From Bryoerythrophyllum caledonicum (Eukaryota; Streptophyta; Bryopsida; Pottiales; Pottiaceae): DNA of 64,000 nucleotides. The notes under the pieces are model-generated. The model worked only from the letters and a program-made list of their open reading frames with translations. It did not search any database and was not told the DNA's origin. Shown here one piece after another: positions 3,669-64,000 of this stretch. The position numbers and the translations under genes were made by a program. The stretch's first letter is position 1; every line of letters starts with the position of its first letter. Location: contig OZ020516.1 of assembly GCA_963971425.1 (NCBI GenBank), positions 15,922,593-15,986,592 on the forward strand, written 5' to 3'.

Positions 3669-4065
3669 ATGAATGAATGGAAACTATGAAAATACTTTAG
3701 AGCCACATAGAGGAGAATTTTACCTACATAGTGTGCATCTTTGTAATACCAAGAATGTGAACAATGATATATCCTATAAATTGTTGCAATCAAATTTTTA
3801 AAAATCATCATATATATTTCTCAGTTAATTTTTTTTGAAATTACGTGAATAAGATAAAATAATTCACAAAAAATAGAGATTTCATTTTTTGACATTGACA
3901 TTTTATGAACACGTGAAGGGTCCGTAACACAAAAGATTTAATAGGATAAATTTGATAAAATCCTCCCATATTAAAAATGAATGAGAGAATTTCAAGTGCT
4001 CACAAAATGGTTGCAAGACCTGTTGGAGGGTACTGTACAAATGGAACTACAACAGGGAGTACACA
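3669..4065. other. AT-rich, no feature
   Basis: No reading frame of substance and no inverted ends seen. Confidence 0.4.
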
Positions 4066-4069: not shown

Positions 4070-5176
4070 CCCCTAAATGACCAAATGTGTGTTCCGGGGA
4101 CAAAGTTTTCACTTTTTACTGATATTATCATTCAAGTTGTACCGTGGTCAAAATCATAAGATCCCTTGGTTACATCTTCAACCCCTAAAGGCCCAAGAGT
4201 CCCCTCGGGGGACTCTTGAAGGTTTGGGCAGGTTCCTCTGGTGTCAATTTGTAACATTCCTTTATGAAATTCTATTGTAGATGGACAGTGCTAAAATCTT
4301 CGTGTGAGTTCAGTTTTTTCTTAAATCCGACATTCTATGCAAAAGTTATGGGGTTTTGAATTTCAAATGGGGAGACCCGGCACATCCGGCGACTCCAAAA
4401 ACTTTTGGTAGGACAATCTATTGAATGTGAGATTTTCAATACTAGAAAATAATATTATTTCCTTTCATATTGTCAAGAATTTTTTTTGTCTTAAGTGGAA
4501 AATAGCATAGTAATCTAAGTCAAACATTTTCACACTTTGTCGAGCATGGTACCAAAAATACATCTTCTTTTCGACATAAAATTTTGAGATCTTTATATTT
4601 CTTACATTTTATTTTTTCTACTACAAGATGTGGTCTAAACCTTCATATTGACCATTTGGATTATCATTCTAAAACATATATAGCTCACAAAAAAATATAA
4701 CGTGAATTGGTAATTTTTGAACCTCCACTCCTTGCACATTTGTTTTGAATACGCTACACCCCTTCTCTACCTCTAAAAAGTGGTGTTCAAGGAAATAAAA
4801 TCATGATTAAAATGGTGGTAATGTTTTCAGACCTTGTGTAGTGCAAAAATTTGACACCAATTGAAGTCAAAGTCTGTTGATCCACTCAATGCAGGGAAGA
4901 AACATAACGGTTTTTCTACTTCAAACATTATAATCTTTCAATCCGTGCGGTGCAAAGTTTGTGAGGGCATCAATGAATAAGTTTTATTTAGATCCTTCAG
5001 TTAGATGTAGAAATAAAACGTTTTGATCACCTCATTACTCATTGCACTAGAACGAGGAGTTTCCAAGTGCTTTTGGTGTGAAAATGCCTTGGGCCTTTAG
5101 GGATTAAGAGGTTCATCTTGGCATTTTTAAATCAATGGAGGTTGAATTCCTCTAAATTCCCTTGGTCCTTTAGAGG
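4070..5176. mobile_element. Short TTAA-type MITE, split by a second insertion
   Basis: Left end CCCCTAAATGACCAAATG and right end TTGGTCCTTTAGAGG are inverted; flanks are TGAA and TTAA. Removing the inner element (4182-5103) leaves about 180 bases matching the ends of the 298-bp copy at 16813-17110. Confidence 0.7.
4182..5103. mobile_element. TTAA-type MITE (CCCCTAAAGG group), inner copy
   Basis: Left end CCCCTAAAGGCCCAAGAG, right end GGGCCTTTAGGGA, flanks TCAA and TTAA. The sub-terminal region 4193-4217 is a near-perfect palindrome with 11-base arms (CAAGAGTCCCC). Its interior shares long blocks with 7580-8550, 24302-25241, 34016-35708 and 62423-64000. No transposase frame. Confidence 0.8.
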
Positions 5177-7579: not shown

Positions 7580-8550
7580 CCCCTAAAAGCCCATGACAAT
7601 TTCACACCAAAAACACTTCAAAATTGTTGATTCTAGTGCAATGAGTAAGGAAGGAAATAAAACCTTATAATTATCCTTATGACCATGGGATCTCCATTAA
7701 GACTTACGAAGTATCATACTCACAAAATTTCATACACTTTGGCCACACGGATTGAAAGATTATCGTGTTTGAAGTCAAGAAAATGGTTCATTTTCTTCCT
7801 TGCGTTGAGTGGATCAGCAGACTTTGGCTTTACTTGGTATTAAATTTTTGCACTACACAATGTCTAAATCTTTTACCATTGTGTTAAGCATGATGTTAGT
7901 TCCCTACACACTAGTTTATAGAGGTCGAAAAGGGGTGTAGCATATTCAAAACAAGTGTGCAAGGAGTGGAGTTTCAAAAGTTGTCAATTCACTATTTAAC
8001 TTTTTGAGAATTTAATATGTTTTAGAATGATAATCTAAACAGTCAATAAGAAGGTTTACACCACATATTATTGTAGAAAAAATAAAAAGTGAAAAATATG
8101 AAGATCTCTAGGTTTTATGTAGAAAAGATGAAGTTATTTTCCCCGCTTGCCCGAAATGTGTAAAAATGTTTGACTTGAGTTAAAATGTTTGTTTACACTA
8201 AAGACAAAAAACAATTGACATTTTCAAAGAAGGTAATATTCTCTACATGTATGGAAAATCTCAATGTCAATAGAAACTTCTAGAAATTTTTTGGAGCTGC
8301 CCGGAGACCCCATTTCTAACTTAGAGTGGTACTAACTTTCAAACCATGAATCCCAAACAAAAAAAAAATTAAAAATTTAAATTTAAAATTTAAAAAAATT
8401 AAAAAATATATATATATATATCCATGGAGCTCTTATTAGGGACAATCTTGTATAATTTTATTTTTTAAGAAGATTTTTTTAAATTTTAGGAACCTACCCA
8501 AAATTCAAGAATCAAAAGGTACACCCCACGTATAATTCGGCTCTTAGGGG
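7580..8550. mobile_element. TTAA-type MITE, near-complete copy
   Basis: Flanked by TTAA on both sides (7576-7579 and 8551-8554). Ends CCCCTAAAAGCCC and CGGCTCTTAGGGG. Length 971. At 7697-7700 it contains an unoccupied TTAA that in the related copy at 34016 is occupied by another insertion. An AT-rich tract with a (TA)n run lies at 8360-8422. No coding capacity. Confidence 0.85.
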
Positions 8551-11963: not shown

Positions 11964-12787
11964 CCTTTTGAAATTGTTTCCCGGGACTTAAATTAGTGAT
12001 TTTAAGACCCGGTTTTATCACCACTATAAACCTAATTAACTACTTAAGCATTTCTCTATTTTCTCTATTGGCTATCTAATCTAATTTCACACAATACTAA
12101 CTATTTTTCTAGTTAACTAATACTAAAAACCTTATTTTAACTAATTTTTTTGGTAGGGGCGACGAAGTGGGAGTTTTAGACTCCCACAAGTATGCATGGC
12201 ATAGTGCATGAAAATGGCAAATGCATGAAATGGTGCATGAAGTGACCCAAAATCGATAACTCAAAATCTAAAAACATGAGTCATTATTGGCATTGGGTCA
12301 TGAAGTGGGCAATTTTGGGTTGCTCCACCTCAATTGAGCTCTCATTGGTGGCATTGCCTCTAAAATTGAACACGACCGATCAGCATTGGGTACCCTCCAT
12401 GAGTTGATTATCCATGGCATATCTTCTCTCTTTTATTCACTCTCATTTGTTGGCATTGAACAAAGGAGAGCACTAAATCTCAGTCACTCTACAGCTGATT
12501 ATGGGCTCCGGTGGTTTTTTGGCTTCTAAATTCTATATCAATTCCAAATCTTTGTGATTAAATTTGAATATGATGCGGAATTAGGAATGGAACTATTGCA
12601 AATTGATGAACCCGGTACTTCATCCTATTTTTCCCTCGTGCCGTTATCCACAACCTTAACGACCACACTCCAAACAGACAACACCTGCACTTTCCCTCGA
12701 CGACTTCCTAGATAACACTAGAGCATCCCATGTAGTGCCCTCAACAGCTCCTTTGACGAGAGGTTTTCAGTTGCATTCAACTTGTAG

Positions 12788-15242: not shown

Positions 15243-15792
15243 CCTCTAAAAGATCATTCCCCTCTAGGGAACGTTTACATTTTGGGCATGTTTCTATGGA
15301 TTCAATTTTGATCATGAATTTCCATTTTTTTAATTAAGAGGCAACATTATAGTAGCTTTGTGGGAATTTTTTTTTGAACCGGACTTTTAAAAAGAAAGTT
15401 ATGCTATTCTATTGCAAAATTGAGGACTCCGGGCAGCTCCAAAATTGTGCTAGAATTTTCTAATGACATTAATATTCTTCATACACATTCTTCATAACCT
15501 TCTTGGAAGATGTTTAAAAAAATTCATGTCTTTAGTGTAAAGTAGCATTTTAACCCAAGCCAAACATTTTCATCCATTGTCGCGCAAGGGAAAAAAAACT
15601 TATTCTCGCATTTCAAACGCTATAATCTTCAAATCCGTGCGGTGGATTGCAAAAAAAAAGTTGGAATTTTCATACAGAAGTATTTTTAAAGATCTTACGG
15701 TTGAAGTAAAAAAATTACTTTAAAATGTGATTTTTATGCCTCTTTTGACAGTGGCAGTTTTGGAGCAAAGTTGGCCGTGGTCCTCTAAGGGG
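15243..15792. mobile_element. TTAA-type MITE, 550-bp variant
   Basis: Left end CCTCTAAAAGATC, right end GGTCCTCTAAGGGG, flanks TCAA and TTAA. Shares its right sub-terminal block (GTGGCAGTTTTGGAG) with the copies at 19255 and 22449. Confidence 0.7.
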
Positions 15793-16812: not shown

Positions 16813-17110
16813 CCCTTAAAGGACCAATTGTCTGTTTGGGGAACAACTCTTTTCACTTTGGTTGTAACTATCTTTCAATCCGTACGGTCAAAATTCACAA
16901 AATGGGGTAAAGAACCAAGGTTTTTTAAAGAGGAATCTCTACTCCATTGAATAAAAACTTCCAAAATAAACTTTTAGAGGATGCAACCATATAATCTTCT
17001 CCTAAACTTGTATGAAATGATGTGGTAAAAACTTTGCAAATTTTAACTACATATATTGAAAGTCAAATGAAAAAATTTGTTCCCTCAAAGGACACTTGGT
17101 CCTTCAGGCG
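16813..17110. mobile_element. Short TTAA-type MITE, 298 bp
   Basis: Ends CCCTTAAAGGACCAATTG and ACTTGGTCCTTCAGGCG, flanks GTAA and TTAA. Interior keeps the CTTTCAATCCGT block common to the group. Confidence 0.75.
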
Positions 17111-17114: not shown

Positions 17115-18840
17115 ATTATCAAAACGCAATAGTTATCATAACCTCACCTCCTATATTAACCCTTAGCGCCTACATGGACCATAAGAGTGAGAGACAATCC
17201 ACGAGTGTAGTAGATTAGGAAAAACATCATATATACATTGGATACATTTCAGCACAAAAATCTACAACTCCACTACATAGAAATCACTATAGTTTATTAA
17301 TGCTTGCATGGATTTGAGATTGGAAAGATCCATTGGAAAGCTAATGAGGAGCTAAAAATGCGTTTAGAGTACACAAGAGACAAAAGACTATTGTAGAAAG
17401 ACTTACAAGAGACAAAAACACAAAAGACCCTGCAAGGGCCTTTAAGGCACTAAAGGCTTAATATGATACATGTACCCTCCTCTTTTTATTTTAATATTAC
17501 CATTCTCTTACTTTTAACTCCTAAAGACCAAAAGTCCTAAAGTGGAAATCTAGTGATCGGTGTTGACACACTACACTACCCCATTTTGGATGTCATAGTG
17601 TCACGAAGTAAAAAAAAACACTACTTATTTATTTTAAGGGTACATGAATGAGGAAGATCACATATTTGAATTTGGTGGAATGATTAATATTACTAATGGA
17701 TCATAGGGTCCAAAGGCAATTCCCCATTTGTAATTAGTATTTAGTTTTATTTCCCAAAATCACTTTAAAACCGGGAATTCGATTAAAAAATTGAAAATAT
17801 ATTTTTCTTACACTTTTGTTGGTTGGAAGAGGTAGTTGACAAGATTCTACATGTAGTTATATATATATTTTAAATTAGTTTGTTTTTGAAATAACTCCAA
17901 ACCTAGAATTAGAGATTTTTGGTGTCACCAAGTACCTTCTCTCAAGTTTGAAGTTTTAAAAAAATTCTTTGTAGAAGGGATTAAATAAAAAAAAATTATG
18001 TCACACATAGAATCAAGTTAACTTCCATCTCCAATAAACCAAAATGTAAAATTGTTGTTATTCAATTTTTTTATTGAATTCTCCGTTTTGGCCCAAAATG
18101 TGTAGGGAGTAGTGTGCCAACATCTTAATTTTGGGTAGCTTACACCAATAACACCATATATTTTTTAATTGGGAGATTGGGAGCCTTTCAAAATAATAAT
18201 TGAATCTTGAATTGACCTATACATGCTAATGTATAGAATTTGTACAATGCAAGTGGTCAAGCATCTACAATTATCTTTGAAATTATATGGAAGTCATAGA
18301 AATAAGGTGCATATTCAGCTTAAGTCAACCCGAAAGTGCACAAACAATTATTGGGAAAACCATTCATACATTTCAAAGTCCTAGAAATCTCCCAATTCAA
18401 TGAATATGGTGTTGAATGTCAATTTACTTTATGAATTTTTGAAATTTATATTGGAGATGTGGATAAGTAGTAGCTTTGGGGGGAGGGCTTAGGAATAAAT
18501 AATTTTTTTTAAAAATGCACGAGACTAAACTTACAAGTTTTTTAATTTCAACCGAGGAGAGTGGGCTGGGTGGGCATGGTACTATAGAGCACATAGTACT
18601 ATTGTAGAACTTGGACAAGAGCTGAACAATGCAATTTCTTGTAGGGGATAGCAATGAGGGAAAGTTCTTGTTTGTATTGTAGAAAGTTTATGTAGTAGTT
18701 AGAAATTTTGACTTCTTATTTTTTTCAAAAGACATCTATCTTCCTAATAGAAATAGGCAAAAAAGCTTTCCACCATTTGTAGAAAATAGTACAAATATGT
18801 TTCAATTAGTCCTACAACGTTTGTCTTAGAGAAGTAGTTT
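17115..18840. other. AT-rich intergenic, no feature
   Basis: No gene or paired element ends. A small minus-strand frame at 18424-18654 has no recognisable content. Confidence 0.4.
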
Positions 18841-19110
18841 TAGGGTGGTTTTGATTAAATATATTCTCCATCTTTTAGAGGTAAAATTGGAGAAAACGGT
18901 TTCCTTTTTTCCTGTATTAAGAGGGTTAGCAAACTTTGACTTCACTTGGCGTCACATTTTAATAGTTTGCAAGGTCTAAAATTTCATTCTTAAATGCATA
19001 AAATATTTCTAGAAATTTGTGATTAAAATTGACATTATAGAAATCCACTTGAAATGCTAAAAGTTTCCGAGAGGACAAATGTCCTTTAGGATTTGATTGT
19101 CATCCAATTA
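18840..19110. mobile_element. Decayed TTAA-type MITE remnant
   Basis: Contains the group's internal block (GACTTCACTTGGCGTCA) and a degraded right end (GTCCTTTAGGATTTG). No left end seen. Confidence 0.5.
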
Positions 19111-19165: not shown

Positions 19166-20232
19166 GAGCATGCTCAATGAAAAGAATTGATTAATGAGTC
19201 CAAATAAATCATGAGCGACTTGAAGGCTGTCGTATCCATTCCCTAGCCTCTTAATCCCTAAGAGCCCATATATCCCTAGGGGACATTTTCATTTTGGGCA
19301 GGTTCCTTAAAAAAAAAAATTAATATTCTTGAAACTTTTATACTAGATTTTCCATGATAATATCTTTGTGAATTTAAAAAATAAAATTGGATTCATAATA
19401 TGAAAGTTATAAGCCTTCAAAGTCAAATAAGGGACTTCAAGTGGCTCGAAAATTTTGGCTAGAAGTTTCTATTGACATTAAGATTTTTCATACATATAGA
19501 GAATATTACCTTCTTTGAAGATGTCAATAAAAAGGTCTTGTCTTTAGTGTATAAAACTTTATAACCCAAGTCAAATACTTTCACACATTGTCGGACAAGG
19601 TACCAAAAAAAACTTCATCTTTTCTACATAAAACCTTGATATCTTCATAATTTTTACTTTTTTTTTTTTGACAACATGTAGTGAAAACACAACAAAATAA
19701 AATGTGAATTGGCAATTGTTGAACCTTCGCTTCTTGCACACTTGCTTTGAGTATGCTACACCCCTTCTCTACCTCTAAAAATTTGTGTATAAAGAACTAA
19801 TATCATGCTTAACACAAAGGTAAAGGATTTAGACCTTGTGTAGGGCAAACATTTGACCCCAAGTGAAGTCAAAGTCTGCTGATTCACTCAACGCTTGGAA
19901 GAAATTGAACCATTTGCTTGACTTCAAACTCTATAATCTTCATATCTGTGAGGTGGATTGTAGCAAAAAAAAACATGCTAAGTTTGTATAAAAGTCTTTT
20001 TAAAGATCTTACGGTCAAAATTCCAAAATTGTATTTCAAAATTAGATTTTCTTGACACTTCTTGATAGTGGCAGTTTTCGAGTGTTTGTTAAGAGAAAAT
20101 GCCATGAAGGTAGAGATTGGTTGATTCCAAATAACGGAGACCCTATTAAAGATCCCATTGGATCAAGGTAATCGTTGCCTAGCCTCAAAACATCGTGTTG
20201 AGACCTAGCTTGCGGGCCCATTGAAGATGCTC
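19166..20232. mobile_element. GAGCATC-family (Harbinger-type) MITE, interrupted
   Basis: Ends GAGCATGCTCAATG and ATTGAAGATGCTC, flanked by TTA (19163-19165 and 20233-20235). A TTAA-type element sits inside it at 19255-20088. Net length is about 230 bases. Confidence 0.7.
19255..20088. mobile_element. TTAA-type MITE nested in GAGCATC element
   Basis: TTAA occurs on both sides (19251-19254 and 20089-20092). The left end is TCCCTAAGAGCCC; the right terminal bases are lost, but the sub-terminal GTGGCAGTTTTCGAG block is present. Confidence 0.7.
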
Positions 20233-22255: not shown

Positions 22256-23640
22256 CCCTTTAGCACCCAGGTCATGTTTCTCCAAAACCATGATATGTGC
22301 TGATTTTTTTCTTTGAACTAACTTTGATGGAAATACAATGCTTAATTTCAGTATCCAACCTTACAAAATTGAACTCAAACCATGTCCTAAACTTTGGGGA
22401 GAATTGGCACAACATCCAACAGTTGATGGAATAGATTATGGTGTTTAACCCCTAAAGGACCACGACCACTTTCGCTCTAAAACCAGTCCGAAACTGCCAC
22501 TGCCAAAAAGAGACATGAAAATCACATTTTGAAGTGAATTTTGGATTTTCAACCGTAAGATCTTTAAATAGACTTCTATATAAACATTCCAACAAATTTT
22601 GGTTGCAATTCACCGCACGAATTAATAGATTTTAGTGACAAGGTCTAAATCTTTTATCATTGTCTTAAGCATGATGTTATTTCCCAACACACCAATTTTT
22701 AGAGGGAAAAAAGGGGTGAAGCATATTCAAAACAAGCGTGCAAGGAGTGGAGGTTCAAAATTGCCATTTCACATTTTATTTATTTGTGAACTACGTATGT
22801 ATTCAAATGATAATCCAAACGGTCAATAAGAAGGTTTTCGCCACATATTGTTGTTGAAAAAATAAAAAGTGAAAAATATGAAGATCTCTAGGTTTTATGT
22901 AGAAAAGATGAAGTTTTTTTCCCCCATTGCCCGACAATGTGTGAAAATGTTTGACTTGGAATATAATGCCTTTTTACACTAAAGACAAGATTTTTTTTTG
23001 AAAATTTCCAGAAAAGGAAATATTCTTTATATGCGTGAAAAATCTCAATGTCGATAGAAACTTTTGTCAAAATTTTTGGAGGTGCCTAGTGTCCCCACTT
23101 TTGGCTTTAAGTGGTACTAACTTTCAAACCACAAATCCAAAAAATAAAATAAAAATATGTCCACGAAGCTCTCATCAGAGGCAATCTATAATAAAAATTT
23201 CAGAGAAAAAGGATTTTTTTTCGAATATTAGGAACCTGCCCAAAATCAGAAATCCCCCCGAAGGAGACTTTGGTCCTTTAGGGGTTAAAGTTACCGTATA
23301 TTGGCAATGAAAATTGTGGACTTTGGAGGATATATTACTTTATCCATCAGTAGATTTTTGCAAGAATTTTTGTACTTTAAATAAAAAGAGGTTCACATGT
23401 GACTAGGTCGATAACTTCGCATTTACATATCATACATGAAGAAAACATTTATATATGATTATTCATGATTTTTAAAACTTTTGTCTACTTGATTGTATAC
23501 AAAAATGTTCCAAACTTGTACACATTAAAATGAATGTGTTGTATGTAATGAGTGTAATCAACAATGACAAATCAATGAAGAATATCTTAAAGACAAATTT
23601 CAATCAATATTGAAGACCAAAATCAAAGTATTCATTCCGT
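22256..23640. mobile_element. CCCTTTAGTGCC-family TTAA element, interrupted and 3'-truncated
   Basis: Left end CCCTTTAGCACCCAGGTC follows TTAA (22252-22255). It aligns in reverse complement with 54302-55091. The CCCCTAAAGG-type element 22449-23284 is inserted in it. Homology stops near 23640, so the right end is missing. Confidence 0.7.
22449..23284. mobile_element. TTAA-type MITE with clean TTAA duplication
   Basis: Ends CCCCTAAAGGACC and GGTCCTTTAGGGG are exact inverted 13-mers, flanked by TTAA (22445-22448, 23285-23288). The homologous unoccupied site is at 54900-54903, where a single TTAA joins the same flanks. Confidence 0.9.
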
Positions 23641-24297
23641 TAATAGTATTCATTCCGTTTGTATATTGAACAAATCTTTCCCTCAGAGTGGCTGATGGCA
23701 ACAACCCTATGACCTTGCAGCTTTGAATTGATGGTTAACGCTATGCAAGTTCCTAAGGGCCCTTTAATAGCAAGGGAAATTTGGTTCAATTGTTTGTGAC
23801 ACTGTCGAATAGCCTGCATCCTCACTTATCATTGGTTAAAACAATGAAATCAAACCCATTACCTTTAATGCGAGGATTGCTATCTTGTCACTGGTAAATG
23901 GTGAGCAGTGAGCATTGAGTAATTGAATTTAGGGTTTAGGGTTTAGGGTTTAAGGTTGATATTTTAGGATTTATGGTTTTAATCATAGGCAATACTTTCA
24001 TCTTTTTCAAAGAAAAGTATCAAATAACTATTTTTCACCCATTTTATTTTTACTCACCGCTCACCGCTCATTGTTCACCGCACACAAGAGAGCATCCCTC
24101 CCTTTAATACTCCTAGCAATGAACACAAAGCTATCTGAGAGAATGAGTGAATATACTATATTTTCTTTAAAAAATGGCTTTAGGACACCAAACCATCATG
24201 GATATACATAAATATCCTATGAGACCCAAGTATCTCAAGTTTCATTTGAATAATAGTCTGAAAGTATGAGAAGTGGGTCCAGCTAAAAGTCTCTGGA
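23641..24297. other. Intergenic with minor frame
   Basis: A minus-strand frame (23640-23825, 61 codons) has balanced composition but no recognisable domain. Otherwise no feature besides the telomere-like run. Confidence 0.35.
23928..23955 (+). repeat. Interstitial TTTAGGG telomere-type repeat
   Basis: Three exact TTTAGGG units plus one TTTAAGG. This is the Arabidopsis-type plant telomere motif. Confidence 0.9.
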
Positions 24298-24301: not shown

Positions 24302-25241
24302 CCCCTAAAGGACCAAGTGTCAAAAATGGGCTTTTTGAAAGTTCGGTCAGGTTCCTATGCTGTCAATTTCCAACATTCCTCTTTGAAATTTTTTACTATA
24401 GAAAGGCATTACCAAGACCTTAGTGGGAAAACAATTTTTTTCCTAAATTGGACAATTGATGAAAAAGTTATAGGGTTTTGAATTTCAAATGGGGAGAGCG
24501 GGCACCTCGGGCACCTCCAAAAACTTTTGCTAGGACACTCTACTGAATGTGAGATTTTCAGTACTCGCAAGTAATATTATTTCCCTTAATATTGTCAAAA
24601 AAAAGATCTTGTCTTTAGTGAAAAATAGTATATCAACCCAAATCAAACATTTTCACACATTGTCACTCATTGTCGGGCAAGGTACCAAAAAAACTTCTTC
24701 TTTTCCACATAAAACCTAGATATCTTTATGTTTTTCACTTATTAATTTTTCCACAACAATATGTGGTGTAAACCTTCTTATTGACCATTCGGATTATCAA
24801 TCTAAAACATATTAAGTTCACAAAAAATCAAAGTGTGAATTGACAAATTTTGAACCTTTACTCCTTGCACAATTGTTTTGAATATGCTACACCCGTCTTC
24901 TCCCTCTAAAAATTGGTGTATAAGGAACTAACATCATGCTTAACAAGATGGTAATGGATTTAGACCTTGTGTAGTGCAAAAATTTGACACCAAGTGAAGT
25001 CAAAGTCTGCTGATCCATTGAATGCAGGGAAGAAAATGAACCATTTGCTTGATTTCAAATACTATAATCTTTCAATCCGTGCGGTTAAAATTATGAAATT
25101 TCGTAAATATAGTATCTAATAAGTCTTAATTGAGATCCTACGGTAAAAACTAGAAGTTTTTGTTTCCTTCTTTGTTCATTGCACTAGAATCCAAGAATTT
25201 TGAAGTGTTTTTGGTGTAAAACTGTCACAGTACCTTAGGGG
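24302..25241. mobile_element. TTAA-type MITE, near-complete copy
   Basis: Left end CCCCTAAAGGACCAAGTG, right end AGTACCTTAGGGG, flanks ATAA and TTAA, length 940. Its interior closely follows 4182-5103. Confidence 0.85.
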
Positions 25242-26713: not shown

Positions 26714-26716
26714 ATA

Positions 26717-27069
26717 AGGTAAGCCTCCCTGTAACCAACAAAGATCCATAGCCAACGCCTATAAAATTGGGGCATTTCCATCCCTCTTCCATCCCATTAC
26801 CACCAACTAAGCTCCAAATGGAGGTTTGCTATTAGTCAAGATCCTTACTTTTGGTCGTTGGTTATGGAGGTACCTATTGTTGGCCACCCACTAAACATGG
26901 CTGTACAGTTTGAAAATTCATAACTAATTCAGTTTTCATCGAAAAAATATGAAATCACTTGGGTTGGAGTTGTAATTCTATTGGCTATTACAGAAAAATA
27001 ATAGTATAATTATCTCCTCTCTCCATGTATGCACATTCTTTAACTTGTTGGTTTTAGGGGGGCTTACCT
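26717..27069. mobile_element. AGGTAAGCC-family MITE, 353 bp
   Basis: Ends AGGTAAGCCTCCCTGTAACC and GGTTTTAGGGGGGCTTACCT, flanked by TA on both sides. The same length and interior occur at 48438-48789 and 50891-51243. TA duplication fits a Tc1/mariner (Stowaway-like) origin. No coding capacity. Confidence 0.8.
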
Positions 27070-27071
27070 TA

Positions 27072-29590
27072 GTTCACTGCATGGTTGACTGCGCAATTGA
27101 TCGCTGCGTGGTTTACTACGCAAGTAATGATTTTAGTAGTAATATGATTAATAGTTATGAAGAGATGGCCATGTATATGTCTACCTCAAGTGCCATCCGG
27201 TGAGGATAAAATATAGGACCTGCTCATAGGCCAATGCATTGTTGGTGCCCCATGGAATATATAAGAAAGTGTGCAGACTGAGAATCACTGCAATATGCAG
27301 CCCAATGAGTGCAGACGTCAACTGCACAGCAAACTCGGCCATCAATGCGAGTCACACACACAAGTGAAATCTACACCCTTCCTAGATAACCACGGTTCCT
27401 GATCTGAGATTCATTCCTATAGCCTGGAAAATGGAAGGCATGGAACCCGCTTGGTGTCATTCTGATGAAGCGGAGGTGCAAACTGCCCACTTTTCAGTCA
27501 ATAGAATAGGACAACTTCACAGCCTGATAAGCCGATCAATAAGTCCAGTTCTGTGGCAACTTTTTATTCCTTCTTCTTCTTCTTCGGAGCAAATCAAACG
27601 AAATTTGATTGCAAAAGGAAAAACTCTGCAAAAAGCTAAGCTGTTCCTCAAATTAACCTGAGTATGTGTGAATTCCACCTGTGACATGCTTCCAGCTGTA
27701 TGGAGAAGAAGCTTATCTGTCACCGAATGTCACTCTTTCCAGCGAACATATATTAGGCCACCGGATGATTTTCACCGGCGCCTTTTCTTCACCGTCTCGT
27801 CACCTTTTGGCACCCAGTCAACTTGTCTTTGGATGTAGAGACAAAACCGAGAACTGAGCGATGATGATTGTGCATTCGGTGGTCCACTTAAAGATTTGCC
27901 ACGAACCAACGGAGCTGGACTCTGGTGTGAAAACCTTTGGGTAGATTCGGTGATGACTTTGGGTAAATTCGGTGACCTCTACAGGAAAAGATATCAGTGC
28001 TACTTCCAGAATATCAGCATCCGAATGATTGATTTGAGTATTGGAACAGGAAAATACTGATATTTTCTTGCGGATGTCAAATCCCATTCAGTTTGACTTC
28101 CGAAAGGATGGCTTTTTTCTGAAAGTAACTGGTGTCTGGACCATGGCGAACTTGACCTACAGAAAAGCATTCATTTCTGGTGAAGGAGCTCAAGGAAAGG
28201 GGAAACACCAACGGCAACAACCGCGTTTAACCACTCGGTGTTCGAACTTGTCAAACATAAAAAAATAATAAATAAGGATTAAAAAAAGCATCAGTGGGGC
28301 TTGTTACCACGGTGGTTTAGATATATTTTCTCCTGATCAGGGGTTTAGGCTTGGCTTTGAAGTATGTGCACATAGCGCCGGTATGTTTTATGATCGGCCG
28401 CAAAAGACATAAATTCCAGGAGAATATCTGCTTTATGGCTCCACAGACGCGGTATCACATTCGCACACACACATGCATCTTGCGAATGCGCCGTGGCGTT
28501 CAATCACAAACTTACCGGGTGGCTCAGAAAGCAAGCAATATGTTCTTTGGATGCTAAGCTGGCAGCCTGGGATGCAACTAAATTTAGTTTCGAGGTCAGA
28601 GCCTCAACTGTTCACTTGGAAAAGTGCTCATCCAGAATTCCTTCGTGAGGGGTAGGGACTGGAGGCACTGACTTCCGGTATCTCCGAGGCTCTTGGATCC
28701 ATTCAATGAGCACCGTGGGATCGATGGAGTTGACCCGAGTGTTGGAGAAGGGAGATAAATCGGTGATGGATGGGGCCCAGTTGGCGAGCCTGGAAATGTG
28801 CCCCACGGAGGTTTTGTGGAATGCCTGGGAGGGGGTAATCATGGCGTGGAGATAGTAATAAAGCTAGGCAAGTGTCATTTTGCGGCTCCACAAGGGTATT
28901 TAATGGAGCTCCGCGGTTGTTTGCGGTCATGGCTCAGAACTCCCTCGAATATTCACAGCCTCCCTGCGCAGCAATCTGATGACATTGCCAATTGTAGACT
29001 TGGAGCAGAACTCGGGGCCTGTGAGCAGCTGGCACACCAGAACCGGCATCGAATCTCTGCCTTCCATGCGGAGCCACCTTCTTTGTTTACAGGGTAAGTA
29101 GAGCCTCCGGTGGAACCGAACTGGGATGAAAACACGTGAATGGACCTCCAGTCTTTCGGGTACGAAAGGTTTGTTGCGATTCGTGGAAGCTGTAGACTCC
29201 ATGTCAGGTCCAGTGCGTTATAAGTCTATTGGCTAACCAAAAGATCATCACCACTATTGTAGAACGTCATGACTGCCACAAGTCATGATAGCTGTTGTGC
29301 CCTTTGAAATACAGTCTTTCGAAAACTTCACCATTGTGAACGTCAACGGTGTCAACTTAGAGCGATGGATTGTCTCCAAATAGTAGTCTCCGGATCCGTC
29401 ACTGTCGTCAGTGCAATATCTAGCTTTCAGTGACGCTCATCTCTCTAGTCAACAATGATCTGAATCTCGTCATCGGCATAGAATTATCGCTGAATTAGTG
29501 GCGGAATGGCAAGGAAGTGGTTGCATTGCCGGGTCTCATGAATTCTTCATTCGGGTGGACGTTGGTAGCTGATCCGGTCGCTGTGAGCTG
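27072..29590. other. Unique region upstream of the AP2 gene
   Basis: GC content rises toward the gene and repeat families are absent, as expected for promoter and 5' leader sequence. Several short overlapping frames (27431-29202, both strands) have no recognisable domain. A TATA box or transcription start could not be fixed. A short upstream frame of eight codons starts at 29592, overlapping the first start codon of the AP2 frame. Confidence 0.4.
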
Positions 29591-31380: not shown

Positions 31381-31394
31381 TTAACCCCTGAAAG

Positions 31395-31974
31395 ACGCCC
31401 AGGGCGAATTGACCTCCTTGTTGGGAGTTACCCAAAAGGTGGGCCCTGTCTTAGGGCCAGTTTACACTAAGGTGAAGAAGTGCACAGGTCAGTCAAGAAT
31501 TTCAGCCCAAGACATGGTTATTTGAGGCAAGGGTCGATGTGCCGGCCGTGTTTCTTGTCCGAGGCTTTGAGCTCGCCCAAGAAACTTGACCTCCAGAGAA
31601 CCTCCCCTCCAAAAAGTGTCGCCGCATTGGCAGCCATGTCATTTATTCATCCATGCACAAAGTTCTCCACCGGAGGACTCTTGGCCGAAGTGTAAACCCC
31701 CATCGGAGAAGAGCGTCACTCTTGGCCAATCAAATTTCAGAATTCCCCTGGAATTCATGGCCGGTGGACTTCTCCACCATAGTGTAAACTGGCCCTTAAT
31801 TGCGTGGGATCGTTTTTCTGGTCTTCTTATTTTGGGGGGGTCCAGAGGATTTTTTTGGATTTTTTGGGACAAATTTGGGACCTATGGTCATTTTTTATCC
31901 ATGGGGACCCTCCCTTGCTATAATTGGGGCCCCTTAGGTAACTCCCAACAAGGGGGTCAATTTGCCCTGGGCGT
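31395..31974. mobile_element. 240-bp inverted-end MITE, middle layer
   Basis: A 36-base end at 31397-31432 matches the reverse complement of 31937-31972 at 34 positions. Its interior block (GGGGGGGTCCAGAGG and following T-rich run) matches 51806-52047 and 61123-61386. Net of the inner insertion it is about 235 bases. Confidence 0.8.
31454..31795. mobile_element. Harbinger-type MITE, inner layer
   Basis: Ends GGGCCAGTTTACACTA and TAGTGTAAACTGGCCC (28-base ends, 26 matches), flanked by TTA at 31451-31453 and 31796-31798. TTA duplication and GGGC ends fit the PIF/Harbinger (Tourist-like) group. Overlapping frames inside are not genes. Confidence 0.85.
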
Positions 31975-32381
31975 GTACTTGCCGGGTACTAAACTTATAT
32001 CTTTCAAGACTCCAATTCTCTTTATAGTTGTATGGTCAAATTTCACAATTTCTTTATCACATCATCGCATATATGTTTATTAAAAGACCCTACGGTTACA
32101 ACTCAAAAAGTTCGTCTCGGTGATTTTCAATCAGTGGAGTAGGGATTCCTCTAGAATGTCTTGGTCCTTTAGGGATTTACTTATATGAGATAATGTGGTA
32201 AAAGTTTTTTGAAATCTAACTCTACGGATTGAAAGATAACTGGAGTCAAAGTGATAAGTTTTGTACTCCAATAGTACACTTGGTCTTTTTGGTATTACAA
32301 GCGTCTTTTGTTTGCATGGTGCTCATAAACTTTGAATGGAATTTATAAACTATAGGAAAGTTCGTGTATGTTATATCTTAA

Positions 32382-32467
32382 GCCCTAAAGGACTGTGACT
32401 ATGTTTGACCAAAAATCATGGCCATTGGCGGGAGGAGTGATAGGTATGCTCTAACTCAAAAGTAAAC
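32382..32467. mobile_element. Truncated TTAA-type end
   Basis: TTAA followed by GCCCTAAAGGACTGTG is a left end of the CCCCTAAAGG group; the element is cut off by the next insertion and no right end was found. Confidence 0.5.
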
Positions 32468-33001
32468 TAGTACACCGTTCCCTGAATATAGTGTAGACTA
32501 GACTATTTGAAATTTCCTACACTAATTTCATCAAACGCAAATTAAAGTGGTCCACTTCAATTTTCCATCCACATCAAATCATGTCCATTAGAAATAGTGT
32601 GGTTTGTTTCAAAATAAAAGACACGGGAATTGATGTGGATAAGTTTTTACAAATTGTACTCAAAACAAAAATTATAATATAATAACATAATAATAACATA
32701 ATAACGTAATAAAATATTAACATAATATTATAATATAATATAACATAATATAATATAACAGAATATAATATTAACATAATAATATAATAATAACATAATA
32801 ATAACATAATAACATATATTATAATATTAATATTATATATAATTATAACATATATTATAATTACATATTAATACTATATTAATAACCAAAATTGATGTGG
32901 TCCACATCAATTTTCATCCAAAACTAGAATTGATGTGGTCCACCTCAATTTTCATCCACATTACCTATACCTCCACACTATATTCAGTGAACGGTGTAGC
33001 T
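32468..33001. mobile_element. TACACCGTTC-family MITE with AT-rich core
   Basis: The ends at 32472-32497 (TACACCGTTCCCTGAATATA) and 32975-32996 are inverted. The core at 32665-32885 is a run of (TAATAA)n and (TATAATA)n. Blocks with GATGTGGTCCAC repeat on both sides of the core. A shorter related copy is at 51403-51602. Confidence 0.65.
32665..32885. repeat. AT-only low-complexity tract
   Basis: About 220 bases of almost pure A and T built from ATAATA, with scattered C, inside the preceding element. Confidence 0.9.
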
Positions 33002-33011
33002 ATGGCTTTAA

Positions 33012-33740
33012 GCCCTAGGAAAGGCCTAAGGTGTTTTAAAGGAATCTCTACTCTGTTGATTATAATTTGCCAAAATGAACTTTTTGAGAATGCGACTCGT
33101 AGGACCTTCTTCTAAGCTTGTATGAGATGATGTGGTTAAAATTTTGTGAATTTTGACCTTACATATTAGAGTTATTTGTAAAGGGAACCGGTCTTTTGTC
33201 CTCCTTTTTTTCATGGAAATGAAAATCTAACCTGTATTTGAGTGTAGCCACAAAGTAATCCTGTTAAATAAATTCAGGTTTTGAGGGTTTTATGGAGGTG
33301 TCAGTTACCACAAATGGCACAAATCTCCCAAAAACAAACAAGAACAGTGTTGAATAGTGTTGGCTAATTGGACCAATGTGGTATGCATATTCAGCAAAGT
33401 CGTAGACATAGCTGATTGAACAAGTCTGGCACATACAAATGCAGAATGTCGCTGACATGGCTGACTTGAACAGTGTGTACCATGTGACAACACTCGGCGC
33501 TCAATAAAACCCAGGCTCAAACTGGAGTTTGGGAATTCTATGGCTCAAAAACTAATCTGTCCAGTGTTCTATTCAAGGTCTAGAGTAAAACCCTACCAGT
33601 GGACTCAGCGACCCTGGCTTTTCCATTTTACAGGCCAAAAACTCAGGATTTGGGGTACTTTGCGGATAACTCTATTGAAAGATATTACCTTCAAAGTGGA
33701 ATTCTTTTGTACCCCGTAGGTACACTTGGGCCTGTAGGGG
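33012..33740. mobile_element. TTAA-type MITE, decayed
   Basis: TTAA on both sides (33008-33011, 33741-33744). Ends GCCCTAGGAAAGGCC and TTGGGCCTGTAGGGG. The middle (33190-33640) lacks the group's usual blocks and may be another insertion. Confidence 0.55.
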
Positions 33741-34015: not shown

Positions 34016-35708
34016 ACCCACAGGAACTTTTCATCATTGACAATTTCACACCAGAACGACTTTGAAATTGTTGATTCTATTGCAATGAGTAATGAAGGAT
34101 ATAAAACCTTATACTTACAGTTTTGACCGTAGGATCTTCATTAACCCCTAAAAATCCTTGTGTTCTTGGGAGCTCGAAAACCAAAAACTGCGAATTTCTA
34201 CCACCTTGTTGGAATTGAGGTATGGTCAATGTAATTACTGTTTTTTAGTACTTTCAACCGTAGGATCTTGAACCTAGCTACTATGGAATATACTACATCA
34301 AATTTGAGCCGTTGGATGTGCACCATTTGTGAGATTATAATGTTCAAAGTTGATGCAAAACTTTTTTTGGGCATTGTTTAAAAGACATAGTCTACTTTGT
34401 GCAAAGGAAAACTTGATGATTGCTACACCAATCATTTTGCTCATATTTTTTTCCATGTGGAGAATCATGTTTTGAATGCCTATGCAAAATTTTAGAGACT
34501 CATTTGGCTTTTTGGACCTTCATGCAAATTATTTTCCAACAGAAGGTATAAAAACGGTGATTTGGAAAAACATGCATCACGTTTATTGTATTTAATTTAG
34601 GAAAAAATGAACGGTGAGTAGGTACCTCTTTAAGTTTGTGAATTTTGGGAAAAATTATTTTTGAAAAATTATTAAATCTCAAATTTTGACGAATTTTGAA
34701 AGAAAAAAATGTAATATTGTGAAAAACTTTGAAACTTGTTGTTGTAATTTTTAAAGGCTGCCCTTGCAGAATTGGTAAAAGGTTCAACATGGGTCACTTG
34801 GAAATTTGAATAGAAACTTGGTTATGAACATATTAGCAAAAAAACATTTCAAAAAAATGTTGAAAATAAAAAGTTTTTTTCTGCCCGCCCAGAGGTTGAA
34901 AACTAAAATTTGAGTAAATAAGCTCAAAAATTGGAATTCGACTTTGCAAATTGTTGCACATACACCTTGTAGTATAGGGAACACCCCGTAAAAATCTTTT
35001 GCAAAAATATTAAATTTAACCCCTTGAACTAGGCTGCCCGAAATAGCAAAAAGCCATTTCGGCTTTCAAGGATCTTTAGGGGTTAAGACTTACTAAGTGA
35101 CATATTCACAAAGTTTCATACACTTTGACCACACAAATTGAAATATTATAGTGTGCAGAGTCAAGAAAATGGTTAATTTTCTTCCTCGCTTTGAGAGGAT
35201 CAACAAACTTTGACACCACTTGGTAAAAACAAATTGCACTACACAAGGTCTAAATCTCTTACCATTGTGTTAAGCATGATGTTAGTTCCCTATGCACCAA
35301 TTTTTAGAGGAAAACAAAGGGTGTAGCATATTCAAAACAAGTGTGCAAGGAGTGGAGGTTCAAAACTTGTCAATTCACTATTTCATTTTTTGAGAACTTA
35401 CTATGTTTTAGAATGATAATCCAAACGGTCAATAAGAAGGTTTACACCACGTATTGTTGTAGAAAAAATAAAAAGTGAAAAATATGAAGATCTCTAGGTT
35501 TTATGTGGAAAAGATGAAGTTTTTTCCCGCTTGCCCAAAATGTGTAAATGTGTTTGACTTGAGTTGAAATGTTTGTTTACACTAAAGACAAGAATTTTTT
35601 GACATTTTCAAAGAAGATAATATTCTCTACATATATGGAAAATCTCAATGTCAATAGAGACTTCTAGCAAACTTTTGGAGTTACCCAGAGTCCCCATTCT
35701 AACTTTGA
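34016..35708. mobile_element. TTAA-type MITE, interrupted and running into the gap
   Basis: Left end CCCACAGGAACTTTTC after TTAA, then the standard CAATTTCACACC block. It contains the inserted element 34145-35082 and continues collinear with 7700-8330 until the N gap. Confidence 0.75.
34145..35082. mobile_element. TTAA-type MITE, distinct subfamily, clean target duplication
   Basis: Ends CCCCTAAAAATCCTTG and CAAGGATCTTTAGGGG; flanks TTAA (34141-34144, 35083-35086). The unoccupied counterpart at 7697-7700 has one TTAA between the same flanks (TCTCCA and GACTTACG). Its interior differs from the main subfamily. Length 938; no transposase frame. Confidence 0.9.
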
Positions 35709-36800: not shown

Positions 36801-37338
36801 GGAGGCACCCAATTCCGATCACTTAATCTAGTTGGAGACTCAAATGACATTGTATGTCAAAAACATTTATGTAGGAAGATGCAGAATTAGGAATGAAACT
36901 CAACAAATATTTTTTCAAATTTAATCTCAAAGATTTGCAATTGGTATAGAATTTAGAAGCCCAAAAACCACCGGAGCCCATAATCAAACTGTAGAGTAGG
37001 TGAGATTTGGTGCCCTCCTTTGTCCCAATGCCAACAAGTGAAAGTGAGTAAAAAGAGAGAAGACATGCCATGGATAACCAACTCATGGAGGTACCCAATG
37101 CCCATCAACCTTGTTCGACTTTTGAGGCAATGCCACCAATGAGAGCTCAATTGAGGTGGAGCAACCCAAAATTGCACACATCATGACCCAATGCCGATAA
37201 TGACTGGAGTTTTCAGATTTTGAGTTATTGGTTTTGGGTCGCTTCATGCACCATTTCATGCATTTACCATTTTCATGTACCATTCCATTTATACTCTACT
37301 GATTGGAATTGGGTGGCCGATGGGAATTGGGTGCCTCT
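36801..37338. mobile_element. GAGGCACCC-family MITE, complete copy
   Basis: Left end GGAGGCACCCAATTCCGATC; right end carries two tandem versions of the terminal motif and finishes GAATTGGGTGCCTC. In reverse orientation it aligns with 52588-53125 and the split copy at 8565-12593. About 538 bases; target duplication unclear; no gene. Confidence 0.8.
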
Positions 37339-38132
37339 ACCTTAGTAGGCAAGGAAATAAGGACAAATGTCACCAAATTGGAAAATTCAAAGATACTAGG
37401 GAAGATCCAACCACACCTAAGATCTCATCAAAGCCACTCAAGTGAAATTGAAATACACAATAGAATGGCAACTTCATCACCTACCACCAACCTACAAAAT
37501 CAATTACAACCACCCACACTAGGTGAGTGCACTAACTTGTAACCCTCCAACGTACCAAGATAAATAAGAAAACCCTTTTTGTGTACATTAAACAATAATG
37601 CATCTATATATTTTTATGATATACTAAAGCAAACACCTAATCACAAGCACCAACACATTAACATATTAAAATAAGAATAACACACATAACCTTAATAAAT
37701 CCAAAAACACAAAAAAGAAGACAAATAACACCACACTAGTAATAATTCGTACATGATAGGGAAAATTGTTTAATGAACAATATAAAACATAACATTAGTC
37801 TTATAAACCTATGAAATATTAAATTAAACTCATTTACTGACAAGGAATGAAACATTGATAACACTATCACCACCAAAATTTAGCCATGTTAAAACACACT
37901 ACTAAATTAGAAAACAAGTAATTAAAATAAATCACATAATCGAAGAACAGAGAACCAAAATCACAAAGCGGAAAATCTTGTATGGATCCAAGTCAAGAAG
38001 ACATCGAGGAAGTTAGAAGAAGCTGTTAGTAGTAGCAAGTAGAAAACTCCATTGAACACAAGTTATGGCATAAATTTGAAATCAATAATTGTGCGTTTCA
38101 AGTTTCACTAAGAGTTCAAACCACGGATGCAC
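37339..38132. other. AT-rich intergenic
   Basis: A-rich sequence without frames or ends I can support. Confidence 0.4.
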
Positions 38133-38134
38133 TA

Positions 38135-38335
38135 AGGTAAGGCCCCCTAAAACCGACAAGTTAAGGAATGTGCATATATAGAGAGAGGAGATAATTATAC
38201 AATTATTTTTCCAGTGATAGCCAATAGAATTACAATTCCAACCCAAGTGATTTCATATTTTTTCAATGAAAAGTGAATTAGTTATGAATTTTCAAATTGT
38301 GCAGCCATGTTTAGTGGGTGGCCAGCACTAGGTAT
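38135..38335. mobile_element. AGGTAAGCC-family MITE, right half missing
   Basis: Left end AGGTAAGGCCCCCTAAAACC after TA, then collinear with 48438-48640, stopping at a junction near 38335. Confidence 0.7.
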
Positions 38336-44736: not shown

Positions 44737-44830
44737 CCCTTTAGTGCCGAGGTGGTCGTTTTTGGGTCGATTTTGTTGCTTTCCGGGATATAGCTCTTTC
44801 TGTTGCTTTCATCGATGCACTTGGGAACTG
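44737..44830. mobile_element. CCCTTTAGTGCC-family terminal fragment
   Basis: TTAA (44733-44736) followed by CCCTTTAGTGCCGAGGTGG. No right end recognised downstream, so it is a fragment or a diverged copy. Confidence 0.5.
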
Positions 44831-48410: not shown

Positions 48411-48437
48411 GGAATGCAAGAGATGTGAATTGGAATA

Positions 48438-54301: not shown

Positions 54302-55091
54302 ATCCTTTAGTGCCACAAGACCCAAAATGGGACTCTGGAGGTGTTAAAACTCAATTTGCATGAAATCCATGAGGAATTGTGTTGTGAAATTTGAAGTTTG
54401 AATTTGCGCACACATCACATAAATACCCAGTAAAAATCAGATCATGATTTAGAATTCTAGAACTCATGGAAAGCAAGGAATACAACACAAAATACATCAA
54501 ACACACTAAAATATAGTGAACACCATGCTGCATACTATGTTGTATTTCATACACATGCAAAATACTTTGGGTCTTAAATTTTGATTGAAATTTTCCTCAA
54601 AGAGATTTCTTCATTGCTTTGTCATTGCTGATCTCTCTAATTGCATACACAAGTTTTTTTTAAATTTGTATAAGTTTGGAACAGTTGTGTATACAATCAA
54701 GTAGACAAAAGTAAAAAAATCATCAGTAACTACGTATCAATGTTTTCTTCACGTATGATATGTCAAAGGAAAGCTATTGACCTAGTGCACATGTGAACCT
54801 CTTTTAATCAAAGTACAAAAATTCTTGCAAGAGTCTATCGATGGATAAAGTAGTATACCCTCCAAAGTCCACAATTTCCATTACGAATATACGGTATCTT
54901 TAAACACTAAAATCAATTCCATCAACCGTTGGATGTTGTGCAAATTTTCCCAAAGTTTAGGTCATGGTTTGAGTTCAATTTTGTAAGGTTGGACACCTAA
55001 ATTAGGCATTGTATTTCCATCAAAGTTAGTTTAAAGAAAAAAATCAGCACATATTTTGGTTTTGGAGAAAAACGACTTCGGCACTAAAGGG
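54302..55091. mobile_element. CCCTTTAGTGCC-family TTAA element, complete copy
   Basis: Ends TCCTTTAGTGCCAC and TTCGGCACTAAAGGG, TTAA on both sides (54298-54301, 55092-55095). Length 790. Contains the empty site at 54900-54903 matching the insertion at 22449-23284. No coding capacity. Confidence 0.8.
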
Positions 55092-55584: not shown

Positions 55585-56450
55585 TCCCAAGGTTGGCTTT
55601 TGCATATCTCGGGCACGTTTCCATGGTTGCGATTTATATTTACAATTCTTTAAATTTTGAACAAAGATGCAAGAAGACAAGAGGTACATGGAAATATAAT
55701 TTTCATTCTCATCCGATCTATGGAGAAAAGTTGTTTCATCTGAAACAAAAACTTCTTAAAATTGGGCATGTTGGGCAATTCCAAAAGCTTTTGTCAAGAC
55801 GCTCTAGTAAATGTGAGATTTTCATTGCTAGAAAGTAAATTTATAATTTCCTTCCATAGTGTCCAAAAAATTCTTGTCTTTAGTGAATCATAGCATGAAT
55901 TTGATCCAAGTCAAACATTTTCACACATTGTTGAACAAGGTACCAAAAGATCTTATTTTCCACATTAAACTCAAAGATCTTCAAACTTTTACTTTTTATT
56001 TTTTCCACAACAATAGTTGGTATACGCCTTCTTACTGACATGAATAAACGTGAATAAGCAATTTTTGAACCTCCACTCCTTGCACAATTGTTTTGGGTAT
56101 GCTACACCCCTTCACTGCCCTTTAAAAATTGGTGCACAAGGAACTAACATCATGCTTACATGACCATGGTAATTACTTTAGACCTTGTGTAGTGCAAAAC
56201 TTTGACACCAAGTAAAGTCAAAGTCTGCCGATTCACTCCACACAAGGTAGAAAATGAATCGTGTTCAACTCCAAACACTATAATCTTTCAATCCGTGCGG
56301 CCAAAGCTTATGAGATTTTGTGAGTATGTAACTTAATAAGTCATGATTGGGATCCTACGGTTAAAACTGGAAATAGAAGTTTTCATTTCCTTCACTACTC
56401 ATTTTACTAGGGAGTTCATTAATCAGCAGTTTCAAAGTGTTTTAGAGTAT
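55585..56450. mobile_element. TTAA-type MITE, both ends eroded
   Basis: Collinear with the interior of 4182-5103 and 24302-25241 (blocks TCCTTGCACAATTG, CTTTCAATCCGTGCGGCC); terminal motifs are not recognisable. Confidence 0.6.
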
Positions 56451-62553: not shown

Positions 62554-64000
62554 TTCCCTAAGGACCGTGAATTTTGCACCAAAAACACTTCAAAATTGTT
62601 GATTCTAGTGTAATGAATGAAAAAGGATACAAGAAAAGGATTGACCCCGAAAGTACCCTGACAATTTCACACCAAAAACACTTCAAAATTGTTGGATTCT
62701 ACTGCAATGAATGAGAAAGGATACAAAGAAATTTTATTTCTAGTCTTGACCATAGAATCTCAAATAAGACTCATTAAGTAACATACTCACAAAATTTTGT
62801 TGACTTTGACAACAAAAATTTTCTTCCGTGCGTTCAATGGATCACCAAACTTTGACTTCACTTGGTGTCAAATTTTTGCACTACACAAGGTCTAAATCCA
62901 TTACCATTGTGTTAATCATGATGTTAGTTCCTTATACCCTAGTTTTTAGAGGTAGAGAAGGAGTGTAGCATATTCAAAACAAATGTGCAAGGAGTGGAGG
63001 TTCAAAAATTGCCAATTCATGTTTTAATTTTGTGTGACTTAATTTGTTTTAGATTGATAATCTGAATGGTCAATGCAAAGATTTACACTACATATTGTTG
63101 TGGAAAAAATAAAAAATAAAAAATATGAAGATCTCTAAGTTTAATGTGGAAATGAAGAAGTTTTTTTGGTACCTTGCCCGACAATGTGAAAATGTTTGAC
63201 TTGGGTTGATATGCTATTTCCACTGAAGACAAGTATTTTTTTTGACAATGTGAAGGTAAATAGTATTACGTGCTAGTATTGAAAATCTCACATGCATAGA
63301 GTGTCCTAGTAAAAGTTTTTGGAGGTGCCCAAAGTGCCTTGTCTCCCCATTTGAAATTCAAAACCCTATGATTTTTTCAATAAATGTTGAATTTAGGAAA
63401 GAATTGTTCTCCCACTTAAGTCTTAGTAATGCCCTTCTCCATGAAAATTTTCAAAGTGGTATGTTGGAAATTGACACCATAGGAACTTGACCGAACTTTC
63501 AAAAAGCCCATTTTTGACAGTTGGTCCTTTAGGGGTTAAGGAAGAAAACAAAACCTTATATTTATAGTTTTGAATCTAGGATCTCAGTTAAGACTTACTC
63601 AGTAACATACTCACAAACTTTCATTAACTTTGACCGCACGGATTGAAAGATTATTGTATGCAAAGTCAAGAAAATGGTTCATTTTCTTCCCTGCATTTAG
63701 TGGATCTATAGACTTTGACTTCAATTGATGTCAAATTTTTGCACTACACAAGGTCTAAATATTTTTCCATTGTGTGAAGCATGATGCTAGTTCCCTATAC
63801 ACCAATTTTTAGAGATAAATAACGGGTGTAGCATATTCAAAACAAATGTGAAAAGAGTGGAAATTTAAAAATTGTTAATTCACGTTTTATTTTTTTTGTG
63901 AACTTAATATGTTTTAGAATGATAATCCAAACCGTCAATAAGAATTTTCTCACCACATATTGTTGTTGAAAAAATAAAAAGTGAGAAATACGAAGATCTC
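62554..64000. mobile_element. TTAA-type MITE, middle layer, runs off window
   Basis: Starts TTCCCTAAGGACCGTG after TTAA, is interrupted at 62641-62644, and resumes at 63540 (GAAGAAAACAAAACC) collinear with 7645 onward. Confidence 0.7.
62645..63535. mobile_element. TTAA-type MITE, inner layer, complete
   Basis: Left end CCCCGAAAGTACCCTG after TTGA; right end TTGGTCCTTTAGGGG before TTAA (63536-63539). Length 891. Reverse orientation relative to 24302-25241 over its right half. Confidence 0.75.

What the first reader, a model, noticed from the sequence alone, without database searches (positions are those of the whole stretch)
22445..23288. Insertion and empty site prove a TTAA target duplication (first pair)
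The element at 22449-23284 has exact 13-base inverted ends CCCCTAAAGGACC and TTAA on each side. The host repeat also exists uninterrupted at 54302-55091; there the same flanks meet at a single TTAA (54900-54903). Duplicated TTAA plus ends starting CCC is the piggyBac signature; Sola3 also uses TTAA but its ends differ. piggyBac is not a superfamily usually reported from land plants, as far as I recall, so a high-copy plant family would be notable.
Basis: partly seen in the sequence, partly recalled or inferred. Interest (0 to 1): 0.85.

Follow-up and report, generated by a model that had tools for sequence, protein, structure and literature searches.

The report
TTAA-inserting transposons, probably piggyBac-type
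A stretch of what is probably a plant genome is crowded with short non-coding jumping-DNA copies that inserted at the four letters TTAA, most likely moved by a piggyBac-type enzyme not yet found; the insertion evidence is solid, and such elements have already been listed for flowering plants.

Summary
22449-23284 has identical 13-base inverted ends (CCCCTAAAGGACC) and TTAA on each side; the host repeat at 54302-55091 has one TTAA (54900-54903) at the matching point. A second case: 34145-35082, a different TTAA element with similar ends, sits inside a family A copy. Six uninterrupted paralogues span that site; three keep a single TTAA and three are altered there. A scan with the 13-mer alone (2 or fewer mismatches) gives 19 sites: 10 abut exact TTAA, 18 match at least 3 of 4. 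The host repeat is itself a TTAA element (family B, CCCTTTAGTGCC ends). TTAA elements of several kinds cover about 21% of the window. The family A consensus (924 bp) is non-coding; copies are mostly 75-89% identical to it. Best reading: non-autonomous piggyBac-type elements. Kolobok is excluded by its purine termini. Sola3 or an unknown TTAA-specific superfamily is not excluded: no piggyBac transposase was detected in the window and no genome is held. The novelty is smaller than first thought: a 2023 review lists PiggyBac among angiosperm MITE superfamilies and a fern table lists PiggyBac copies. New member of a known kind; moderate interest.

The parts
22449..23284 (.). The element: 836 bp, 13/13 inverted ends CCCCTAAAGGACC; from 22638 on related to family A
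22445..22448 (.). left TTAA target-site copy
23285..23288 (.). right TTAA target-site copy
22256..22448 (+). left part of the interrupted family B element (TTAA|CCCTTTAGCACC)
23285..23622 (+). alignable right part of the interrupted family B element; its outer end was not located
54303..55091 (-). family B element, uninterrupted; ends CCCTTTAGTGCC / TCCTTTAGTGCC; TTAA abuts the 55091 end and lies one base further out at 54303
54900..54903 (-). single TTAA at the empty site
34145..35082 (.). second TTAA element, 938 bp, ends CCCCTAAAAATCC / CCCCTAAAGATCC; no internal similarity to family A; inserted in a family A copy (34038-34144 + 35083-35708)
4182..5103 (+). family A copy, TCAA / TTAA flanks, lying between two further ends at 4070 and 5176 (nested)
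7580..8550 (-). family A copy, TTAA on both sides
15243..15791 (+). short family A copy; TCAA at left, TTAA one base out at right
16813..17110 (.). short TTAA-type element of another kind, GTAA / TTAA
19255..20101 (+). family A copy, TTAA at left end, no recognisable right end
24302..25241 (+). family A copy, ATAA / TTAA
31385..32175 (.). TTAA-type element, TTAA / TTTA (ends paired by eye)
32382..33740 (.). TTAA-type element, TTAA on both sides (ends paired by eye)
55764..56443 (+). family A copy without recognised ends
62645..63535 (-). family A copy, TTGA / TTAA, flanked on both sides by pieces of other family A copies (62424-62636, 63537-64000)
44737..44748 (+). family B end, TTAA|CCCTTTAGTGCC exact
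17446..17457 (-). family B end, TTAA|GCCTTTAGTGCC

Best explanation
The element is a non-autonomous, cut-and-paste DNA transposon. It inserts at TTAA and duplicates it, and was probably moved in trans by a piggyBac-superfamily DDD transposase encoded elsewhere in the genome. Family A (CCCCTAAAGGACC ends, consensus 924 bp), family B (CCCTTTAGTGCC ends) and further elements with A-like ends spread by repeated rounds of insertion, several times into each other. Shown: TTAA target and its duplication, 12-13 bp inverted ends, no coding capacity in the family A consensus, many copies, nesting. Inferred: the piggyBac identity of the enzyme, cut-and-paste chemistry, seamless excision.
For: Filled/empty comparison for 22449-23284 against 54900-54903. 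For 34145-35082 six uninterrupted paralogues span the site, three with a single TTAA (7594-7900, 63537-63791, 25227-24927). Flank-blind 13-mer scan at 2 or fewer mismatches: 19 sites, 10 exact TTAA, 18 with at least 3 of 4; 100 hits of shuffled 13-mers carried TTAA in 3. In 26 hand-picked ends (of the 35 rows) T stands at -4 in 24 and at -3 in 22, neither position being in the scan pattern, while the next base out is mixed. Ends start CCC as published for piggyBac: CC[C/T]T motif, and coral TTAA MITEs with CCCTTTAAGCCCTA and CCCCTCAGTGTCCG (PMC2872659 passages); CCCTT the most conserved 5' motif, and TTAA with rare TCAA, GTAA, ATTA, TAAA variants (PMC10813416 passages). Kolobok, the other well-described TTAA superfamily, has 5'-RR termini (PMC9587614; PMC6004289 table).
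Against: No piggyBac transposase match at E 0.1 or better in the six frames of the window (30 pieces). Family A starts CCCC, one base off the strict CC[C/T]T. Only 4 of 13 listed elements keep TTAA on both sides. Three of the six paralogues spanning the 34145 site read TCAT or ATAA there. Relatives of the nested site at 4182 read TCAA and TCTA. A palindrome beside the end, as in piggyBac, exceeds shuffles (p below 0.05, uncorrected) in only 6 of 33 ends and at neither end of the element in question.
Confidence: 0.75

Rival explanations
1. Sola3-type elements: TTAA-specific, moved by a Sola-superfamily DDD transposase.
For: Copies classed as Sola (group not given) are annotated in a fern: 2,739 elements (PMC6890710 table).
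Against: The defining paper is not held, so termini could not be compared.
Confidence: 0.12
2. A TTAA-specific plant transposon whose transposase belongs to no described superfamily.
For: No piggyBac transposase relic detected in 64 kb although about 21% of it is TTAA elements.
Against: High-copy deletion derivatives usually lack coding DNA (general knowledge); the window is a tiny sample; the ends fit piggyBac.
Confidence: 0.08
3. Kolobok-type elements (TTAA).
For: Kolobok generates TTAA duplications (PMC9587614 passages).
Against: Kolobok termini are 5'-RR; these are 5'-CC. In the plant line that paper lists Kolobok from chlorophytes and rhodophytes.
Confidence: 0.02
4. TA- or TWA-duplicating elements (mariner or PIF/Harbinger type) whose own ends carry A...T, so that TTAA only appears duplicated.
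For: The empty site alone fits TA with ends ACCCC...GGGGT as well as TTAA; 24302 is preceded by ATAA.
Against: The outer T is kept: 24 of 26 and 22 of 26 at the two T positions of hand-picked ends; 18 of 19 sites with at least 3 of 4 of TTAA in the flank-blind scan. Under TA the outer base should be free.
Confidence: 0.03

Closest known systems
piggyBac-derived MITEs, e.g. coral CMITEs (PMC2872659, passages seen)
   Same: TTAA duplication, CCC-starting 14-bp inverted ends (CCCTTTAAGCCCTA, CCCCTCAGTGTCCG), non-coding, an empty allele seen
   Different: CMITEs are about 96-108 bp in the table rows seen, and animal; the elements listed here are 298-1,359 bp with nesting, in a plant-like window, and no autonomous partner is known
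Kolobok / T2-MITE of Xenopus (PMC6004289, PMC9587614, passages seen)
   Same: TTAA target, short inverted ends, non-autonomous copies
   Different: Kolobok ends start AG / RR; these start CC
Sola3 (recalled)
   Same: TTAA target
   Different: termini said to differ; could not be checked
PiggyBac MITEs of angiosperms (one sentence in PMC10004981)
   Same: grouped by TSD and TIR, as here
   Different: no sequences seen by me; relation unknown

Membership tests
piggyBac superfamily | TTAA target-site duplication | tested here: met
   empty site for 22449-23284 and for 34145-35082 (3 of 6 spanning paralogues with TTAA); 10 of 19 exact and 18 of 19 at least 3/4 in the flank-blind scan
piggyBac superfamily | short inverted ends beginning CC[C/T]T (PMC2872659) | tested here: inconclusive
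   family B met (CCCTTTAG); family A starts CCCCT, one base off, though a published TTAA coral MITE family also starts CCCCT
piggyBac superfamily | DDD transposase of the piggyBac family between the ends | tested here: inconclusive
   none detected in the window at E 0.1; genome not held
piggyBac superfamily | palindromic transposase site beside an end (piggyBac and piggyBat left end, PMC11707139 passages; not universal) | tested here: inconclusive
   6 of 33 ends with p below 0.05 against shuffles, about 1.7 expected; two of the six are close relatives; neither end of 22449-23284
piggyBac superfamily | footprint-free excision | not testable with these tools
   empty paralogous sites cannot tell never-inserted from excised
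Kolobok | TTAA duplication | tested here: met
   as above
Kolobok | termini 5'-RR ... YY-3' | tested here: not met
   5'-CC against the rule in PMC9587614
Sola3 | Sola-type termini and transposase | not tested
   defining paper not held
MITE / non-autonomous DNA transposon | short, non-coding, inverted ends, many copies | tested here: met
   family A consensus 924 bp from 12 copies or fragments, longest stop-free stretch 54 codons

The most novel reading that the evidence does not exclude
A land-plant genome hosts a long-lived, high-copy piggyBac (or unknown TTAA-specific) lineage with its own plant transposase, which has filled a large share of the genome through nested waves of several related families.
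Probability: 0.35. Interest if true: 0.6.

Novelty: new member of a known kind. Interest (0 to 1): 0.4.

Why it matters
If the autonomous partner is a piggyBac gene, a plant lineage would be an abundant natural home of a superfamily described mainly from animals, fungi and protists, and a source of plant-adapted, scarless transposition tools. If it is not, it would be a further TTAA-specific enzyme. Either way the ends found here (CCCCTAAAGGACC, CCCTTTAGTGCC) give a direct bait for that gene.

Tried and rejected
Rejected: Kolobok (termini); TA/TWA duplication (outer T kept); chance inverted repeat (10 random sequences). The site at 62645-63535 gave two spanning hits, but both alignments have a gap of more than 20 bases at the junction, so it is not counted as a clean empty site. 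The nested site at 4182-5103 has two relatives aligning through the junction with only 14-15 bases on the left, reading TCAA and TCTA: weak, and not TTAA. A subterminal palindrome like that of piggyBac looked promising by eye, but is above shuffles in only 6 of 33 ends. The DUF7869 gene at 2043-3683 was considered as an autonomous partner: one search lists no TTAA-flanked pair around it (pairs up to 2.5 kb only), the 25 of 57 inverted pairs shown were looked over by eye only, its single-sequence model is useless (mean pLDDT 39), so no fold search was made, and the four PDB hits are at chance level (E 0.46-0.54). The exact 18-mer TTAACCCCTAAAGGACCA is absent from viral contigs. The search for Sola3 termini returned nothing of use.

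Hand choices: 26 of the 35 ends went into (three random sequences gave 10, 3 and 8 hits at that cut, so some of the 35 are chance; nine rows were dropped by eye). 28 A-like and 5 B-like ends went into. 13 elements went into (one, 19255-20100, has no real right end). 12 seeds went into, some of them not of family A inside. The pairs 31385-32175, 32382-33740 and 17518-19092 were made by eye. The family A consensus contains the copies compared with it. For family B the flank-blind scan is weaker: at 1 or fewer mismatches 4 sites, 3 with TTAA; at 2 or fewer 8 sites, 4 with TTAA; at 3 or fewer 54 sites, 5 with TTAA.

Full report
Observation. The window holds at 22449-23284 an 836-base element with 13 of 13 matching inverted ends and TTAA on both sides. 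Its flanks match 55097-54900 at 89.4% and 54903-54566 at 82.9%, overlapping on exactly 54900-54903, where one TTAA stands. The alignment of both flanks with the uninterrupted repeat shows one TTAA shared by all three rows, and the joined flanks align through it at 87% over 400 columns. In 10 Markov-1 random sequences no TTAA-flanked inverted 13-mers reached 12 of 13, against 5 in the window, two of which are real elements of this kind.

A second case. Element 34145-35082 (938 bp, ends CCCCTAAAAATCC and CCCCTAAAGATCC, TTAA on both sides) shares no internal similarity with family A apart from its ends and sits inside a family A copy. Six paralogues run through the site uninterrupted. Three have a single TTAA: 7594-7900 (84%), 63537-63791 (80%) and 25227-24927 (77%). 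The other three, at 56403-56143, 62659-62928 and 5086-4796 (70-76%), read TCAT, ATAA and ATAA there (junctions of the first three printed). No clean empty site was found for the other 11 of 13 elements tested: 62645 aligned only with gaps of more than 20 bases, and the nested 4182 site aligned with 14-15 bases on the left in two relatives reading TCAA and TCTA. These last are against a strict TTAA or reflect decay.

Target. A scan with the 13-mer alone, flanks unused, finds 36 sites at 3 or fewer mismatches (14 exact TTAA, 24 at least 3 of 4) and 19 at 2 or fewer (10 exact, 18 at least 3 of 4; the remaining one, 15791, has TTAA one base further out). Of 100 hits of shuffled 13-mers 3 carried TTAA. 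In 26 hand-picked ends (of 35) the TTAA positions are conserved and the next base out is mixed; the two A positions were part of the scan pattern, the two T positions were not. This argues against a TA duplication with A...T as element ends. Both flanks are exactly TTAA in 4 of 13 listed elements, which I read as decay in old copies.

The host repeat. It is itself a TTAA element: TTAA|CCCTTTAGTGCC at 55091, and TCCTTTAGTGCC at 54303, where TTAA lies one base further out. Further ends of this family B lie at 22256, 44737 and 17457, each abutting TTAA. So the find is one TTAA element inside another of a different family.

Extent and coding. BLAST from 12 seeds (family A, family B and other elements with A-like ends) covers 13,625 of 64,000 bases, 21.3%. 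The family A consensus, from 12 copies or fragments, is 924 bp; its longest stop-free stretch is 54 codons; the pieces match it at 75-89%, with one 32-base piece at 91%. Six-frame Pfam scans of the whole window in 30 overlapping pieces at E 0.1 found DUF7869, Tmemb_18A (0.092), AP2, Methyltransf_2 (0.013), Tc1-type transposase and helix-turn-helix domains, PAX and F-box, but no piggyBac transposase. Badly decayed relics could escape such a scan. No genome is held for the window.

What it is. TTAA duplication and CCC-starting ends are as published for piggyBac and its MITEs (PMC2872659 passages; PMC10813416 passages). Kolobok, also TTAA, has 5'-RR termini (PMC9587614 passages; Xenopus table in PMC6004289), so it is excluded by its own rule. 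Sola3 could not be tested. Family A starts CCCC rather than the strict CC[C/T]T; family B fits. The piggyBac and piggyBat left ends carry a palindrome beside the tip (PMC11707139 passages). Here 6 of 33 ends have one beyond shuffles (4182, 24302, 35082, 54123, 63535, 17457), against about 1.7 expected; two are close relatives, and neither end of 22449-23284 has one. I call this inconclusive.

Mechanism. Shown: insertion at TTAA with its duplication, inverted ends, no coding capacity, nested rounds. Inferred: a piggyBac-type enzyme acting in trans by cut and paste.

Novelty. The host is probably a land plant (AP2 domain just under its cut-off; degenerate TTTAGGG array at 23928-23979); the species is unknown. 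Ten searches of the open library listed no paper that I recognised as describing this family; listings were seen in full only up to the rows shown, and the end sequences themselves were not search terms. One review lists PiggyBac among angiosperm MITE superfamilies (PMC10004981, one passage), a plant review names PiggyBac among DNA transposon superfamilies (PMC10794571 passage), and a Ceratopteris table lists 1,230 PiggyBac elements (PMC6890710 passage). Against that, a 2025 paper speaks of only occasional occurrence in plants, e.g. red algae (PMC12732532 passage). Hence: new member of a known kind, notable for local density.

Noticed in passing
40498-43067: Tc1-like element of about 2.57 kb with inverted arms of about 460 bases at 98.5% identity, CCAAAGAATT ends next to TA, and a transposase (HTH_Tnp_Tc3_2 and DDE_3) split over two frames on the minus strand; recent by arm identity, and perhaps unusual for a plant (recalled).
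   Followed up: partly
2043-3683: DUF7869 gene on the minus strand (Pfam E 6e-38 for 2706-3683), possibly a mobile-element gene of unknown class.
   Followed up: partly
381-493: U5 spliceosomal RNA match on the minus strand.
   Followed up: no
26715-27086, 38119-38334, 48436-48793, 50887-51248: Another repeat family, up to about 360 bases, at about 90-93% identity between copies, closer to each other than most TTAA copies are.
   Followed up: no
12189-12568, 36802-37333, 52593-53123: Repeat family of about 380-530 bases at 88-91% identity.
   Followed up: no
family A ends, e.g. 22449: The end motif contains CCCTAAA, the plant telomere unit (recalled); probably coincidence.
   Followed up: no
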